22,027 nt of DNA. It comes from a virus. The stretch spans positions 1 through 22,027 of IMG/VR virus record IMGVR_UViG_3300037193_001320. The stretch is one strand, 5' to 3'. The position numbers and the translations under genes were made by a program. Of this stretch, positions 15,413 to 22,027 are shown one piece after another (position 1 is the stretch's first letter; the number at the start of each line of letters is the position of its first letter). A model generated the notes under the pieces. That model searched no databases and was not told the origin of the DNA. It saw only the letters and a program-made list of their open reading frames with translations.

Positions 15413-16492
15413 GTGGCAGTCACCGACCGCACGCTGTGGCTGCTCGCCGAGCTCCGCGAACAGGTCGGCGGGAAAACCGACGACGTGGTACGCGACCTCA
15501 CCGCGGCGTGGGTGACCGCCTGGGACGAGGTGTCCGAGGCGTGGCGCCTGGCAATCGCCGAGATCATCGCCGAGTTCGTGGCGACGGGGGTGTGGCCGGC
15601 GCCGTGGAAGTTCGCTCGGCTGGCCCGGCTGAACACCACCGCGGTCCGCACCCAGCAAACCCTGGCCGTGCTCACTACCACCACGGTTGCGGCCGCCGGT
15701 GCCGGCGTGGACGAGGTGATCGCCGCGACCGTCGCCGCCGAACCGGCGATCATGGCGTCGCAGCTACCCGCCCAGCTCGCCGCGGCCGCCCTCAAAACGT
15801 ACGCCGAGAAGGTCGTCCCGTCGGCGCTCGAGGCGATCGCTCTACGCGCCCGGCAGCAGATCACCGTGACGACGTGGCCGCTGTCGCAGGAGGCGACCGA
15901 GGCGGTACGCCGTTCCCTGATCCGCGGGGTCGCCACCGGCGCGCACCCGACCGTCGCGGCCCGGGACATGCTGGACCGCGTCGAGGGGGACTTCAACGGC
16001 GGTCTCGCCCGGGCGTTGAACGTCGCCCGGACCGAAATGCTGGACGCGTACCGCGACGCGTCGGCGCATGTGCACCAGGTCAACGAGGACGTCCTCGACG
16101 GGTGGACGTGGATCGCCACCCTTGATCGGCGTACCTGTCCGGCCTGTTGGGGGATGCACGGCACCCACCATCCGCTGACACAGCAGGGCCCGTGGGATCA
16201 CCAGTCGGGGCGGTGCGCGCGGATGCCGAAGGTCCGAAGCTGGCGCGAGCTCGGCATCGACCTCGACGAGGACGACGACCTCACACCGAACGCGCAGCAG
16301 CGCTTCGACGACCTACCCGAGGCCGACCAGCGGGCGATCGTCGGCCCGGGCCGTCTCGCCATGCTCAACGCCGGGCAGATCACCCTCGCCGATCTGCCGG
16401 TGCGTAAGGACAACCCGGGCTGGCGTCCGTCGTATGTGCCCCGCAATCTCGCCCAGCTGGACCGGGTGGCCCGCCGCCGGCGGACACCGTGA
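15413..16492 (+). CDS. MuF-like phage head morphogenesis protein
   Basis: The protein belongs to the Mu gpF / SPP1 gp7-like group, minor head proteins that bind near the portal and help assembly and DNA ejection. The 359-residue product is mostly helical in its N-terminal 155 residues. The MuF domain at about 160-272 shows ALNVARTEMLDAYRDAS (201-217), GWTWIATLDRRTCPACWGMHG (230-250) and DHQSGRCARMP (262-272). C242, C245, H263 and C268 are the likely metal or core residues. Start GTG 15413 has AAGGGGG seven bases upstream; longer in-frame starts lack this. MuF is usually directly after portal. Here about 11 kb separates them, most of it the giant gene, so the head module looks expanded by insertion. 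Confidence 0.92.
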   Translation: MAVTDRTLWLLAELREQVGGKTDDVVRDLTAAWVTAWDEVSEAWRLAIAEIIAEFVATGVWPAPWKFARLARLNTTAVRTQQTLAVLTTTTVAAAGAGVDEVIAATVAAEPAIMASQLPAQLAAAALKTYAEKVVPSALEAIALRARQQITVTTWPLSQEATEAVRRSLIRGVATGAHPTVAARDMLDRVEGDFNGGLARALNVARTEMLDAYRDASAHVHQVNEDVLDGWTWIATLDRRTCPACWGMHGTHHPLTQQGPWDHQSGRCARMPKVRSWRELGIDLDEDDDLTPNAQQRFDDLPEADQRAIVGPGRLAMLNAGQITLADLPVRKDNPGWRPSYVPRNLAQLDRVARRRRTP

Positions 16493-17141: not shown

Positions 17142-18167
17142 ATGCCGGACACCACCAGCCTGACCACAATCGACGGCGTGACCACCGACGGGCACCGGGC
17201 ACGGGTCATCGTCGACATCACCGTCCCAGCCGCGGCCGAGCAGGTGTGGCCGCCGCCGATCGTGGTCGGCACCACGGTCAAGGAGGCCGACTTCGGCCTG
17301 TTCCGTGGCCGGGCGCGCGGGTCACGGTTCGCACGTACGTTCTCCCCGGACGGCCGGGGGTTTCTGCCCTGGTCGGCGCCGAACCGGCAGTTGCCTGACG
17401 GTGTGGCGGAGTTCCACTCCTGGAAGGACTGGCCGGCCGACACCACGGTCGTCGACGGCCTCACCGCGTGGCTGGACGCGATGCCGGCGCGCCTGCTCGA
17501 CGAGGCGCCGCTATTGCCGCACCTGCGCCCGTACGACCCGGATGGCTACAGCGACGGGCAACGCGACTCCGACGGGCTGTCCTGGCTGGTGACGTGGTGC
17601 CACGAGGGCGAACGCAACATGATCGAGGCCGGGATACCGGCCCGGGAGTGGCGGCGCCGGCACCGCCTCGCGTACAAGACGATCCGGCAGCACCGCCACG
17701 GGCACCGCGTCGGCTACATGAGCGTCGGCACGCTGACCTGGCTCGCGGCAACATCCGATCTGGCCCGGGGTGTCGTCAAGGGCGACTACGACCCGTTCGC
17801 GTGGTGGTCCGGCGTCGGTGACTTCGCCGCCATCGACTGCTACGCGCCCACGATCACGGAAGGCCGGGCAGCGCCGGCGATGTACCCGACCCCGGCGAAG
17901 TTCTTCGGGCCGCTTGTAGAGCTCGCCGCCGGCACCGGCCGCCGCCCGTTCGTGCCCGAGCTCGGCGTCGCCCGTCAGGGCGACCCGGCCGACACCGGTA
18001 CCCTCCGCGCGAACTGGATCACCAACTGTGTCCAGTACCTCGACAGCATCGGCACCGGTGGCGTCGCGTGGTGGGACGCCACCGGGTCGAAAGACTTCCG
18101 GCTCACCGACCCGGCCAGCGCCGCCGCCTGGTCGGCTGAGCTCACCCGCCGGAACCGCGACGGGTGA
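17142..18167 (+). CDS. TIM-barrel glycoside hydrolase-like protein
   Basis: The 341-residue product has the layout of a clan GH-A type (beta/alpha)8 glycosidase resembling family GH26. A first strand is near FGLFRGRARG (51-60). The candidate acid/base is in WCHEGERN (152-159, E155 or E157). Middle strands read VGYMSVGTLTW (190-200) and DFAAIDCYAP (227-236), the candidate nucleophile is in FVPELGVAR (270-278, E273), and a last strand is GGVAWWDATG (306-315). There is no signal peptide or membrane segment, so secretion is unlikely. A role on the virion against host-surface or extracellular glycans is inferred. A degenerate or non-catalytic barrel is also possible. Start ATG 17142 follows AGGAGGAG; in-frame codons upstream lack a site. 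The last 26 bases overlap, tail to tail, with a gene on the other strand. Confidence 0.72.
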   Translation: MPDTTSLTTIDGVTTDGHRARVIVDITVPAAAEQVWPPPIVVGTTVKEADFGLFRGRARGSRFARTFSPDGRGFLPWSAPNRQLPDGVAEFHSWKDWPADTTVVDGLTAWLDAMPARLLDEAPLLPHLRPYDPDGYSDGQRDSDGLSWLVTWCHEGERNMIEAGIPAREWRRRHRLAYKTIRQHRHGHRVGYMSVGTLTWLAATSDLARGVVKGDYDPFAWWSGVGDFAAIDCYAPTITEGRAAPAMYPTPAKFFGPLVELAAGTGRRPFVPELGVARQGDPADTGTLRANWITNCVQYLDSIGTGGVAWWDATGSKDFRLTDPASAAAWSAELTRRNRDG

Positions 18168-18795
18168 GCGCGGCCAGCGGCGACGGCCGGCCTCGTGGTG
18201 TAGCCCGCACCGCCGGCCAGTCGTACGCCGGGTCGGCGAGCAGCGCGTCCAGGTCCCCGGTGCGGAAGAGCAGCACCTTCGAGCTCCACTGCCCCCAATA
18301 CCAGCCGCACGACTTGATCCGCTCGGCCCGGACCAGGTGGTCAAAGTCGACGCGCCGGATCTGTAGGTAGCCTGCGGCCTGCTCGCTGTTCTGCCGCCGG
18401 CCCGCCACCGCGGCCGCTTTGAACGCTTCCACGTCGCGGAACGCCGCGATGCTGCGGCCGCAGTAGAGCGGGTGCCCCTTGTAGCTGCCGGCCCGGGCGA
18501 TCACACCGGCCCGGGCGAGCTCCACCACGGCGTCACGGTCCACCTCGACGCCCAGCCGCTCGGCCAGCGCCTCGGCGGCCTGCCACGCGCCGACGTCGGC
18601 GAGGTCGCCGACCTTCGCCCGGATCTCGGCCAGCTGCGCCCGGGCGGCGTCGACCACCTCGGCCGGCCACCGCCCGCCCGGCCCGGCCGGCGGGATCAGC
18701 CCGTCGTCCAGCGCCCGGGCGAATTCCCACCCGGCGAGGCCCAGCGCGTCCGGGAATTGCCGCGGCCCGTAGTCGCGTAGCTTCCGGGGGCTCAC
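18142..18795 (-). CDS. DNA-binding protein with three HTH-like units
   Basis: The 217-residue product is the last gene of a minus-strand cassette. I see three units of similar plan, each a helix-turn-helix followed by a short wing: residues about 13-50 (FPDALGLAGWEFARALDDGLIPP...GRWPAEVV), 70-122 (AEALAERLGVEVDRDAVVELARAGVIA...YCGRSIAAFRD) and 137-186 (EQAAGYLQIRRVDFDHLVRAERIKS...LFRTGDLDALL). The third resembles excisionase/MerR-type units. It ends with a GRPSPLAAL tail. This suggests specific DNA binding, perhaps as a regulator of the cassette. Start GTG 18795 overlaps the previous gene's stop (GTGA), which argues against the longer frame upstream. No strong ribosome site is visible, so coupling is likely. 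The 3' end overlaps the glycosidase-like gene by 26 bases. Confidence 0.8.
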   Translation of the reverse strand: MSPRKLRDYGPRQFPDALGLAGWEFARALDDGLIPPAGPGGRWPAEVVDAARAQLAEIRAKVGDLADVGAWQAAEALAERLGVEVDRDAVVELARAGVIARAGSYKGHPLYCGRSIAAFRDVEAFKAAAVAGRRQNSEQAAGYLQIRRVDFDHLVRAERIKSCGWYWGQWSSKVLLFRTGDLDALLADPAYDWPAVRATPRGRPSPLAALTRRGSGG

Positions 18796-19286
18796 GCGGG
18801 CACCAGCAGCGGCTCGGAGCAGCCACACGGGACACGCACCCAGTAGACGTTGCGCTTGTCGAAGGCCTGCATCGCCCACCAGCGGCGGCCGCGGCAGCTG
18901 GGGCACGCCTTGACGTCGCCCTGGTCGTCCTCGTCCTCGTCGTCGTCCCACGGCTCGTCGATCGGGTACAGGCCGAGCTCTTCGGGGTCGTCGTGCTGGT
19001 CGTTTCGGCAGCCGTCGTGCTCGGCCCGGCCGCAGCCGTGGCAGGTGCCGCAGAAGACCGGGCAGACCAGCACCGAGGTGGCATCGTCCGGGCCCATCTC
19101 TGCCGCCCAGTCACGCACCCCGGTACCGGTGCAGGTGCGGCATACGCCAGGCCCGGTGTACGGCGCCGGCAACGGCAGCTTCAGGCGCGGCCGCGGGTCG
19201 GTGACCTCGGCTAGCAGCCCGGACGTGTACTTCCCGGCGCCGGCGGCGGCCCGGGTGTCCTGCTTGCGTTTGCGGTTTTTAGTCAT
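18792..19286 (-). CDS. Cysteine-rich zinc-ribbon protein (164 aa)
   Basis: The product has a basic N-terminus (MTKNRKRKQ) and then several metal-binding knuckles: C49/C52 (CRTCTGTG), C75/C79 (CPVFC), C82/C85 (CHGC) with H90 and C93, C128/C131 (CPSCRGRR) and C154/C156. CxxCxGxG is the knuckle of the DnaJ central zinc domain, but there is no J domain here. An acidic run lies at 114-124. It is probably a nucleic-acid or protein-binding scaffold; function is unknown. Start ATG 19286 is preferred because GGAGAG lies four bases upstream; GTG 19298 overlaps that site. It is translationally coupled to the HTH gene downstream. The location after dpdA suggests a shared transcript. Confidence 0.82.
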   Translation of the reverse strand: MTKNRKRKQDTRAAAGAGKYTSGLLAEVTDPRPRLKLPLPAPYTGPGVCRTCTGTGVRDWAAEMGPDDATSVLVCPVFCGTCHGCGRAEHDGCRNDQHDDPEELGLYPIDEPWDDDEDEDDQGDVKACPSCRGRRWWAMQAFDKRNVYWVRVPCGCSEPLLVPA

Positions 19287-19325
19287 CGGACTCTCCACAC
19301 ACGAGACGCCCCACGCCCGCCCCGG

Positions 19326-19553
19326 TCAGTCGATGACAGCGACCAGCGCCCGCGATTCGGTGAACCTTCCCCTCAAGCGCCGGGAGGCGGCGTGGGCGCC
19401 CCGTGCGGCTTGGGTGCGGGCCGGCGAGATCAGCCCGAGGGCCAGCGGCCCATACCCCCCGATCGTAGGCCACCACCGGCGGTGGTCACCACAAGCCCGG
19501 GCGGGTGGCGTCCGCCCGTGGACGACGCCGGCGCCGGGCGTTCCGTCCCCCAC
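19326..19553 (-). CDS. Possible small protein overlapping the 3' end of dpdA
   Basis: Between dpdA (ending 19486) and the zinc-ribbon gene (19286) lies about 200 bases with one frame whose codons are GC-rich at third positions, as in real genes here. The frame reads WWPTIGGYGPLALGLISPART and later RGRFTESRALVAVID, then stops at 19326. The only visible start is a GTG at 19553, which overlaps dpdA by 68 bases and has GGGGAA too close to it. A frame on the same strand ending at 19279 is an alternative but has poorer codon use. I rate this as possible only. Confidence 0.35.
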   Translation of the reverse strand: MGDGTPGAGVVHGRTPPARACGDHRRWWPTIGGYGPLALGLISPARTQAARGAHAASRRLRGRFTESRALVAVID

Positions 19554-20643
19554 TTCCCCGGGGCGGCGGGCCGGCCGGTGCCGGCCACGCCATCCGGATC
19601 TCGCCGGCCGGGCCGTCCTCGATGACGACGGCCGGCGCCGGGACCTCGGCGACGACTCGGCCCTCCCGCTGGTCCGTGGTGACCGTGGCGAGGACCCGCT
19701 GGCGCCATGCCTGCGCGAACCGGGGGCAGTTGCGGCAGTCGGTCTGGTGGTCGCGGCACTCCGCCGGGCAGTCCCGGACGCACGCCCTGGTGCGGTGGTT
19801 GCAGCCGTCCAGGAGGTGGTTGTTCTTCCGGGCGTTCTCCGACCATGCGTACGAGTCGGCCGAGGCGAGCAGGTGCCCGATGATCGGCAGCGCCGAAATT
19901 TTCACGCCGAAGCCGTGCAGCTTGTAGCCGCGGGCGGCCAGCAGTTCGACCAGGGCGACGATTTCCGGCACGTCGCCGCGGCGGCAGATCGAGCCGAGGC
20001 CGACCCGCTCGGCGGTGAGGTCGACGCCGGCGGCTTCGTAGAGGTCGGCGCAGTAGAGGTAGTCGGCCGGCTCCCAGCCCTGCAACACCGGGATCCAAGG
20101 CACGTGCGGGTAGTTCTCCCGCAGCCAGAGGTAGTTCTCGACAGTCCACTCGATGTGCTCGCGGACGGTGGCGCCGGTGCGTTCCCGAACGATCGGCTCG
20201 CAGGGCCAATCCTGGGGGGCGACAAAATCGGGCATGCCGACATCCATGACGAACCGGGTCCACAGAGCGCCGTAGCTTTCGCAGTCCATCCACCACGGGT
20301 GCCGCTCACCGCGGACCTCGGAGGAGCCCGTGAGCGCCATGAACGCGCCCGAGTCCCCGAACCAGTTCCCCCACCGCTGGACCTTGAACCGGTCCGATTC
20401 GGTGTCGCGGTACCGGGCGAGGGTGTGCGCCGGAACCATGAGCGGCACGTCGTGGGGCAGGTCAGCGAGCCAGTTCGGGCGGGCGCCGAGGTAGTAGGTC
20501 AGCGGCTTCCGCTTGCGGGTGCCGTCCTGCTCAAACCGGTCGGGGTGCTCGATGCGTTCGCAGGCGAGTTCCCACGCAAGGAACGCGGCAACGTCGGCGT
20601 CTTCGTCTCCGGTCGCCGGGGGCAGTTCGGGCCGTGCTCGCAT
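19486..20643 (-). CDS. dpdA: DpdA-like 7-deazaguanine DNA transglycosylase
   Basis: DpdA enzymes are relatives of tRNA-guanine transglycosylase that swap guanine in DNA for a 7-deazaguanine such as preQ0. In phages this shields the genome from restriction. The 385-residue product shows the family landmarks: GDSGAF with D97, VAPQDWP with D145, IPVLQGW (184-190), VGLGSICRRGD (214-224), LHGFGVK (242-248) and SADSYAWS (261-268), where D263 fits the nucleophile. After the barrel comes a Cys/His cluster (C281, H283, C288, C292, C296, H299, C303, C306) replacing the CxCxxC...H zinc site of tRNA enzymes. A basic, Arg-rich tail ends the protein. Start ATG 20643 follows GAGAGG by eight bases. No preQ0-synthesis genes (folE, queC, queD, queE) occur in the window, so the base must come from genes elsewhere or from the host. 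It leads a minus-strand cassette inside the head module. Confidence 0.85.
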   Translation of the reverse strand: MRARPELPPATGDEDADVAAFLAWELACERIEHPDRFEQDGTRKRKPLTYYLGARPNWLADLPHDVPLMVPAHTLARYRDTESDRFKVQRWGNWFGDSGAFMALTGSSEVRGERHPWWMDCESYGALWTRFVMDVGMPDFVAPQDWPCEPIVRERTGATVREHIEWTVENYLWLRENYPHVPWIPVLQGWEPADYLYCADLYEAAGVDLTAERVGLGSICRRGDVPEIVALVELLAARGYKLHGFGVKISALPIIGHLLASADSYAWSENARKNNHLLDGCNHRTRACVRDCPAECRDHQTDCRNCPRFAQAWRQRVLATVTTDQREGRVVAEVPAPAVVIEDGPAGEIRMAWPAPAGPPPRGSGGRNARRRRRPRADATRPGLW

Positions 20644-20737: not shown

Positions 20738-20850
20738 CAGCCGCTGAAAAATTGCGGGCGCTGACCTACAAACCACCACCGCGCTTTCCCGGCCGAATCC
20801 GGCCGGCAGACAGGCCCGGGCCTCGCTGTAGGCGCGGGCCTGTTTCCTTT
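20738..20850 (+). terminator. Structured leader ending in an intrinsic terminator-like hairpin
   Basis: The 255-base divergent spacer holds three hairpins in a row on the + strand. CAGC+CGC pairs with GCG+GCTG (20738-20763, three-base bulge). CCGGCC pairs with GGCCGG (20789-20806). The strongest is CAGGCCCG (20811-20818) with CGGGCCTG (20835-20842), with an inner GCCT/AGGC stem, followed directly by TTTCCTTT. The last looks like a real terminator in + direction, yet no + gene lies upstream for 2.5 kb. It may attenuate the protease transcript or end a small RNA. Confidence 0.6.
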
Positions 20851-20898: not shown

Positions 20899-22027
20899 AT
20901 GTCCCGACCCCGAACGCGCGTCCCGGGCCGCTACGAGCGGCCCGCTAATCTCCGTGCCCCGCTGGGTGACCACGCCGGCGAGGCCGGCATCCGGGCCGGC
21001 TACCGCGAGGGCGTACGCGTCCGCGCCGACAACGCCCGCGCCGAGCTCGCCGCCGCCCGCCACGCCCGCCTCGTCGACCTGATCACCTCCGGGCAGGTCA
21101 CCGTGGTCGACGAACCGCCCGCCGGCGCCGAGGTCGCCACCGTGGAGGGTGCCGTCGCCGAGGTCGCCCGCCGCGGCGCGTTGCCGCTACGCGAGGCCGT
21201 CGGCGGCCGCGTCACCGAGGCGCCCAAGGACACCGCGTCCGGCCGGCTGGTGACCCTCGACATCATCCGGTCTGGCTGGAACACCAGCGGCAGCCGCTAC
21301 TACGGCGCCGACGTGCTCGAGCGCGACGTGCCCAGGGTGTACGGCAAGGGCACACAGATGTACATCGATCACCCTTCGGCGACTGAGGGCGACGACCGTC
21401 CGGAACGGTCCCTGCAGACCCTCGCCGGCGTGTTCGTCGACGAGCCCTGGGCGGTGCGTGAGGACGACGGCAGCGTCGTCATGCGCGTCACCGCGCAGGT
21501 GTTCGCCCCGTGGCAGCCACTCATCCGCGAGGCGTGGAAGACCGTCGGCGTGTCGATCAACGGCAACGGGCGCGGGGACTACGGCGTCGCCGAGGGCCGC
21601 GAGGGCCTGATCATCGACGAGCTCACCTACGGCCGGTCGGTGGACTTCGTGACCGTTCCCGGCGCCGGCGGGCGCGTCCTCGGCCTGCTCGAGTCGGACC
21701 GGCCGGCGCCGGCCGATGTGGTGACCCGTGAGGCCGGCAGCCTGGGCGCGTACGTGGAGAGCCGCATCCACCTGGGCTTTACGGAGCTCGGCGACGACTT
21801 GTACGCCGGCGGGTACGTCAACCGCCGGGAACGGATCATCCTGTCCGGCGCCATCGGTGACGCCCTGTCGGTGTTCGTCGGCCGCCTCGAGGTCGACGCG
21901 CCGCAGCTGTACCAGCGCGGCCGGTACGCCGGCCCGGACGACGACGGCGACGCCGGCGACACCGTGACCGCCGAGGCCGCCGCGGTCCGGACCCGTGAGG
22001 CCACCGTGGAGCAGTCCCGGATGGCGA
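20899..22027 (+). CDS. Prohead (capsid maturation) protease, 3' truncated by the window
   Basis: The frame is open to the right edge (376 codons). The protease domain at about 108-262 has the assemblin-like plan of phage prohead proteases: RSGWNTSGSRYYGADVL (124-140), MYIDHPS with H158 as catalytic base, GVFVDEPW (177-184), VGVSINGNGRG with S219 as nucleophile, and YGRSVDFVTVPGAGGRVL (244-261). It would cut scaffold and capsid proteins during head maturation. The N-terminal 100 residues are Ala/Arg/Glu rich. The part after 262 is probably helical and may include a scaffold or a second domain. Start ATG 20899 has GGGAGG seven bases upstream. Scaffold and major capsid genes would be expected to the right. 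The order is unusual because a reverse cassette separates it from MuF. Confidence 0.9.
   Translation, partial: MSRPRTRVPGRYERPANLRAPLGDHAGEAGIRAGYREGVRVRADNARAELAAARHARLVDLITSGQVTVVDEPPAGAEVATVEGAVAEVARRGALPLREAVGGRVTEAPKDTASGRLVTLDIIRSGWNTSGSRYYGADVLERDVPRVYGKGTQMYIDHPSATEGDDRPERSLQTLAGVFVDEPWAVREDDGSVVMRVTAQVFAPWQPLIREAWKTVGVSINGNGRGDYGVAEGREGLIIDELTYGRSVDFVTVPGAGGRVLGLLESDRPAPADVVTREAGSLGAYVESRIHLGFTELGDDLYAGGYVNRRERIILSGAIGDALSVFVGRLEVDAPQLYQRGRYAGPDDDGDAGDTVTAEAAAVRTREATVEQSRMA

What the first reader, a model, noticed from the sequence alone, without database searches (positions are those of the whole stretch)
18142..20643. DpdA-led antisense cassette interrupts the capsid genes
A DNA deazaguanine transglycosylase, a zinc-ribbon protein and a triple-HTH protein are grouped on the opposite strand between MuF/glycosidase-like genes and the prohead protease. 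DpdA is normally near preQ0 genes in an early region. Here it is with two non-biosynthetic partners, which could guide or regulate modification. This may be a compact self-contained DNA-protection module that takes preQ0 from outside the window or from the host.
Basis: partly seen in the sequence, partly recalled or inferred. Interest (0 to 1): 0.7.

Follow-up and report, generated by a model that had tools for sequence, protein, structure and literature searches.

The report
Solo DpdA beside unrelated accessory genes
An actinobacterial phage carries, backwards among its capsid genes, a lone copy of an enzyme family that swaps modified guanines into DNA, next to two probably unrelated small genes; this enzyme type is already known from many phages, and the three genes do not form a recurring system.

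Summary
The three antisense genes are real. A PF23859 DpdA (19486-20643) is predicted to have the tRNA-guanine-transglycosylase fold and keeps the catalytic residues. A Zn-finger protein (18792-19286) and an HTH protein (18142-18795) overlap by four bases. They lie in a 4.4-kb accessory interval between MuF and prohead protease, which are near neighbours in 11 other relatives.

The proposed module fails. The closest relative (G001, 89.7 kb, same gene order, DpdA 62% identical) has nothing antisense at this junction. It carries its DpdA about 55 kb away and lacks the other two genes. Neither partner occurs within about 8-10 kb of DpdA in 160 other loci. The Zn protein recurs in Streptomyces phage Gilgamesh far from dpdA; the HTH protein recurs in a phage fragment without DpdA.

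The expectation of nearby preQ0 genes fails for this family: 45 of 46 records lack QueC and QueD. Solo DpdA, even antisense among structural genes, is known from mycobacteriophage cluster B1; Orion (B1) had no detectable 7-deazaguanine. Most likely this is a solo transglycosylase using host-made or salvaged precursor, parked beside an unrelated regulatory pair.

Side result: a third of related DpdA loci have a queuosine-precursor-transporter-like gene directly beside dpdA.

The parts
19486..20643 (-). dpdA: 385-aa solo DpdA (TGT-superfamily 7-deazaguanine transglycosylase)
   Evidence: PF23859 E=3.9e-47; PHROG 1279; AF2 model pLDDT 80.8, Z 18.7 to TGTs, Foldseek match to DpdA 7ui4; D97, D145, Q188, D263 conserved
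18792..19286 (-). DnaJ-like zinc-finger protein, 164 aa, acidic middle
   Evidence: GC-frame; sub-threshold PF00684; 39% identical to Streptomyces phage Gilgamesh gp5 with conserved CxxC pairs
18142..18795 (-). HTH protein, 217 aa, GTGA overlap with the Zn gene
   Evidence: GC-frame; sub-threshold PF12728; 59% identical homologue in L014
20644..20898 (.). divergent intergenic region between dpdA and protease; AT-richer stretch with an extended -10-like TGATATGCT before dpdA (inference)
   Evidence: sequence; the sigma-70 scan found no consensus promoter
20789..20845 (+). two tandem hairpins, the second followed by TTTCCTTT, terminator-like, ahead of the protease
   Evidence: fold z=-4.24; terminator scan
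   Evidence: no Pfam/PHROG/NCBIfam match; 54% identical gene at the same place in G001
15413..16492 (+). MuF-like head protein (left core flank)
   Evidence: PF04233 2.2e-7; PHROG head morphogenesis
20899..22026 (+). prohead protease, cut by the contig end (right core flank)
   Evidence: PHROG 15531 head maturation protease 9.8e-17

Best explanation
The antisense block is two neighbouring accessory units placed in a variable interval of the head-gene region. dpdA encodes a solo DpdA that most likely exchanges guanine for a 7-deazaguanine base in phage DNA by the TGT mechanism (fold and conserved active-site residues: shown by comparison; DNA as the target and the identity of the base: inferred). 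The precursor would come from the host or the medium, because QueC, QueD and a queuosine-precursor transporter were found neither in the window nor in its long relative; without precursor the enzyme would be idle. The translationally coupled Zn-finger/HTH pair is probably a separate regulatory unit brought together with dpdA by chance, not a guide or partner of the modification.
For: DpdA family match and TGT fold; TGT-equivalent residues D97, D145, Q188 and D263 conserved (hhalign aligns Q188 and the G215-G217 loop with the same motifs of a true TGT, though with E=0.08). A family member in an overlapping queC-queD-dpdA operon. A Vut_1/queuosine-precursor-transporter-like gene abuts dpdA in 53 of 163 usable family loci, and 49 of 50 actinobacterial genomes with such a DpdA lack a clear tRNA TGT, so 7-deazaguanine supply plausibly serves this family and not tRNA queuosine. 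C5-methyltransferase neighbours in the window's own DpdA clade (named from sequence motifs). No Zn/HTH partners at 160 DpdA loci; G001 has the empty site and a displaced DpdA.
Against: Orion, an actinophage with a solo DpdA of this group, had no detectable 7-deazaguanine (PMC6884629), so solo members may be inactive in usual hosts or have another substrate. The window's own clade has no transporter gene beside dpdA in any member. The host is unknown and the contig is a fragment, so preQ0 genes elsewhere in the phage cannot be excluded. Lack of recurrence rests on few homologues of the Zn and HTH proteins.
Confidence: 0.62

Rival explanations
1. A dedicated three-gene DNA-modification module in which the Zn and HTH proteins target or regulate DpdA.
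For: Same strand, contiguous, Zn and HTH coupled by a 4-base overlap; the Zn homologue and a DpdA co-occur in the Gilgamesh-type genome.
Against: No co-localisation in 160 DpdA loci; absent from the closest relative; a 199-bp gap separates dpdA from the pair; homologues of Zn and HTH are found away from DpdA.
Confidence: 0.1
2. The solo DpdA has diverged in function: an RNA or nucleoside target, a base other than preQ0, or an inactive relic.
For: Orion DNA unmodified; Hutinet et al. raise functional divergence for singleton DpdAs (PMC6884629). The window and G001 proteins have a longer metal-site loop and N-terminal extensions.
Against: All catalytic positions kept over wide divergence, which argues against a relic; transporter and queC-queD linkages in the same family point to 7-deazaguanine substrates.
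Confidence: 0.23
3. The phage carries its own preQ0 pathway elsewhere and the window simply misses it.
For: The window is a 22-kb linear fragment.
Against: The 89.7-kb syntenic relative has no QueC or QueD, nor do nearly all other DpdA records searched; only one has them.
Confidence: 0.05

Closest known systems
Solo DpdA of mycobacteriophage cluster B1 (Orion, Fang, UncleHowie)
   Same: PF23859-type DpdA without preQ0 genes, on the opposite strand among structural genes with small neighbours (Fang gp19-gp21)
   Different: About 35% identity; inserted between major tail protein and head-to-tail adaptor rather than between MuF and protease; unrelated neighbouring genes
DpdA with preQ0 pathway (Rosebush, CAjan; queC-queD-dpdA of G022)
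   Same: Same superfamily and catalytic aspartates
   Different: Those encode the precursor pathway next to or with dpdA; here none is seen
Bacterial dpd islands (DNA preQ0 insertase DpdA, PDB 7ui4)
   Same: TGT-like DNA preQ0 insertase fold
   Different: No DpdB, DpdC or restriction genes among the cassette proteins
tRNA-guanine transglycosylase (TGT, PF01702)
   Same: Fold, active-site aspartates and a Cys/His metal site
   Different: No sequence-level family match to PF01702; 49 of 50 actinobacterial genomes with this DpdA lack a clear TGT

Membership tests
DpdA (PF23859) / TGT superfamily | significant match to the family profile | tested here: met
   161 bits against a cut-off of 27
DpdA (PF23859) / TGT superfamily | TGT-like barrel | tested here: met
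   Z 18.7, 261-269 residues aligned to TGTs; 7ui4 at 5.4e-6; this is a predicted model
DpdA (PF23859) / TGT superfamily | catalytic Asp pair and substrate-binding Asp/Gln | tested here: met
   D97, D145, Q188, D263 invariant in 41 homologues; equivalence to TGT D102, D156, Q203, D280 from motif position and own knowledge
DpdA (PF23859) / TGT superfamily | C/H metal site | tested here: met
   C281, H283, C303, C306 invariant in 7 homologues; H283 93% and C306 98% in 168
DpdA (PF23859) / TGT superfamily | inserts 7-deazaguanine into DNA | not testable with these tools
   needs nucleoside mass spectrometry
DpdA with de novo preQ0 pathway | folE/queD/queE/queC in the same phage | tested here: inconclusive
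   QueC and QueD absent from the window and from G001, but the window is a fragment; FolE and QueE not searched
transporter-dpdA salvage pair | Vut_1 gene directly beside dpdA | tested here: not met
   no PF02592 match in the window; the gene upstream of dpdA is the divergent protease
Solo DpdA group of actinophages | DpdA without preQ0 biosynthesis genes | tested here: inconclusive
   met for QueC and QueD in the held sequence and in G001; the phage genome is incomplete
Bacterial dpd island | dpdB/dpdC or restriction operon next to dpdA | tested here: not met
   cassette proteins match no such Pfam or PADLOC family
Three-gene DpdA-Zn-HTH module | recurring linkage of the three genes | tested here: not met
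   0 of 160 other DpdA loci; absent in G001

The most novel reading that the evidence does not exclude
Actinobacterial phages and mobile elements run a precursor-scavenging form of DNA deazaguanine modification: no synthesis genes, only a DpdA often coupled to a dedicated queuosine-precursor-type transporter, in hosts that have no tRNA queuosine pathway; the window's clade is a branch that dropped or never had the transporter and relies on host-made preQ0.
Probability: 0.4. Interest if true: 0.6.

Novelty: new member of a known kind. Interest (0 to 1): 0.3.

Why it matters
The cassette itself adds one more solo DpdA in a head-gene interval. The family survey is more useful: it suggests why solo DpdAs persist (the precursor is salvaged) and names strains and phages in which a question open since 2019, what solo DpdAs do, can be tested directly by feeding preQ0.

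Tried and rejected
A three-gene module: rejected for lack of recurrence. The plus-strand 619-aa ORF across dpdA: rejected by GC-frame. A preQ0 pathway in the nearest relative: QueC and QueD not found. Transporter in the window or G001: not found. Defence-system match for the cassette: none in PADLOC. Single-protein searches for the Zn protein in viral contigs and for DpdA in genomes found nothing; an alignment query was needed. The glycosidase search found only G001. HTH fold search: only weak MerR-type hits, E>0.08. Profile comparison of DpdA with a TGT: weak (E=0.08), so residue equivalence rests on motifs and fold. The phylum-wide searches for Zn and HTH homologues scored only a few candidates per genome, so the counts are lower bounds. 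No anticorrelation was apparent by eye between a host QueC and a transporter beside dpdA. Rosebush itself was not in the phage collection.

Full report
What is there. The window is a whole 22,027-base virus record, classed linear and often a fragment in such cases, so nothing beyond it is held. GC-frame analysis shows three coding genes on the minus strand between 18142 and 20643: dpdA (20643-19486), a zinc-finger protein (ATG 19286-18792) and an HTH protein (GTG 18795-18142). The last two overlap by GTGA; dpdA is separated from them by 199 bases. The block is convergent with a plus-strand gene (17142-18167) and divergent from the prohead protease (20899 on).

DpdA. Pfam PF23859 matches with E=3.9e-47 and PHROG 1279 with 1.7e-48. 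The AlphaFold model made from a 41-sequence alignment (pLDDT 80.8, most of the core above 90) aligns to tRNA-guanine transglycosylases with Z 18.7, and Foldseek also lists the DNA preQ0 insertase DpdA, 7ui4. D97 (in DSGAF), D145, Q188 and D263 are conserved in the family; D97, D145 and D263 are also present in the DpdA of phage CAjan, whose deletion abolishes DNA modification (PMC6884629). The enzyme therefore looks competent; its substrate and target are inferred.

The place. Eleven further relatives with terminase, portal, MuF and protease have MuF and protease close together (0-0.8 kb) without dpdA, Zn or HTH genes; one of them, L188, has a different antisense gene there. In the window this interval is 4.4 kb, in G001 4.9 kb. 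G001 (IMGVR_UViG_3300034760_000025, 89.7 kb) shares terminase 54%, portal 59%, the ends of the giant ORF, MuF 57%, the glycosidase-like gene 54% and the protease 49%, in the same order, but has only a 77-aa plus-strand gene between the glycosidase-like gene and the protease. Its DpdA (62% identical) lies at 85385-86848. So dpdA has changed place between close relatives. Tandem hairpins with a T-rich tail before the protease (z -4.2) suggest that the cassette sits at a transcription-unit boundary (inference).

Partners. No Zn or HTH homologue occurs within about 8-10 kb of DpdA in 80 viral and 80 bacterial loci. The HTH protein has a close homologue (59%) in L014, near terminase-like and portal-like genes in the fetched stretch, with no DpdA there. 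The Zn protein has a homologue in Streptomyces phage Gilgamesh (gp5), whose DpdA is gp114, far away, and one in a Streptomyces genome, G073. Five of 396 actinobacterial genomes gave HTH matches and one a Zn match, with limited sensitivity. The association in the window is therefore best read as chance neighbourhood.

Precursor supply. QueC and QueD occur in one of 46 searched records, nearly all DpdA-bearing, where queC, queD and dpdA overlap; control genomes gave matches. Across the family, a Vut_1 (PF02592) gene abuts dpdA, usually upstream on the same strand within about 15 bases, in 53 of 163 usable loci, and in 24 of 86 clusters at 70% identity. Tested examples pass Pfam's cut-off and best match NCBIfam 'queuosine precursor transporter', though below its cut-off. 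On the tree the trait is clustered, 19 changes against 40 in shuffles. The window clade (support 0.999: L002, L016-L019, L141) has none; its neighbours include C5-cytosine-methyltransferase-like proteins and a PAPS-reductase-like protein. Of 50 actinobacterial genomes with a family member, one has a clear TGT and 20 have a strong QueC. The loci were chosen by similarity to this DpdA, so these are not unbiased frequencies.

Known background. Hutinet et al. 2019 (PMC6884629) describe phages with DpdA alone as the largest group, report no 7-deazaguanine in Orion DNA, and note YhhQ transporter homologues without correlation to any group. Cluster B1 phages (239 known in 2022) carry DpdA; the six described there have no other preQ0 genes (PMC9584339); in Fang it is antisense among structural genes. 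GATOR-GC reports YhhQ in about 9% of bacterial dpd islands (PMC11888242). I found no paper in the held library on a transporter-dpdA pair in this actinobacterial family; subscription papers are mostly not held.

Verdict. It is a new member of the known solo-DpdA kind. The linked transporter finding is the part most worth following.

Noticed in passing
L055:7489-8001, L082:7477-7992, L128:7480-7995, L041:7477-7992 and about 50 further loci: A queuosine-precursor-transporter-like (Vut_1, PF02592) gene directly abuts dpdA in 53 of 163 usable loci of this DpdA family in actinophages and actinobacteria, suggesting a salvage-type modification pair.
   Followed up: partly
window:4184-12874: Giant 2896-aa ORF between portal and MuF with a PI3/PI4-kinase-like match (residues about 1367-1413, E=2.8e-9); only its ends are conserved in G001.
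   Followed up: partly
window:20789-20845: Tandem plus-strand hairpins with a T-rich tail just before the protease gene, z -4.2.
   Followed up: partly
L017:6092-7135 and about 10 loci; Gilgamesh gp116 in L013: PAPS-reductase-like ATP pyrophosphatase genes recur near this DpdA family.
   Followed up: no
L209:1947-3768 (record G022): Overlapping queC-queD-dpdA operon in a phage contig of the same DpdA family.
   Followed up: partly
L002:2879-3290: G001's DpdA has an N-terminal extension of about 140 residues with a CHC2-like zinc-finger pattern (CKCP...CPCCGFRGD), by eye only.
   Followed up: no
L188:7333-7992: Another antisense accessory gene (219 aa, unknown) in the MuF-protease interval of a relative.
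   Followed up: no
window:14098-14877: HNH endonuclease gene between head genes (PF01844).
   Followed up: no
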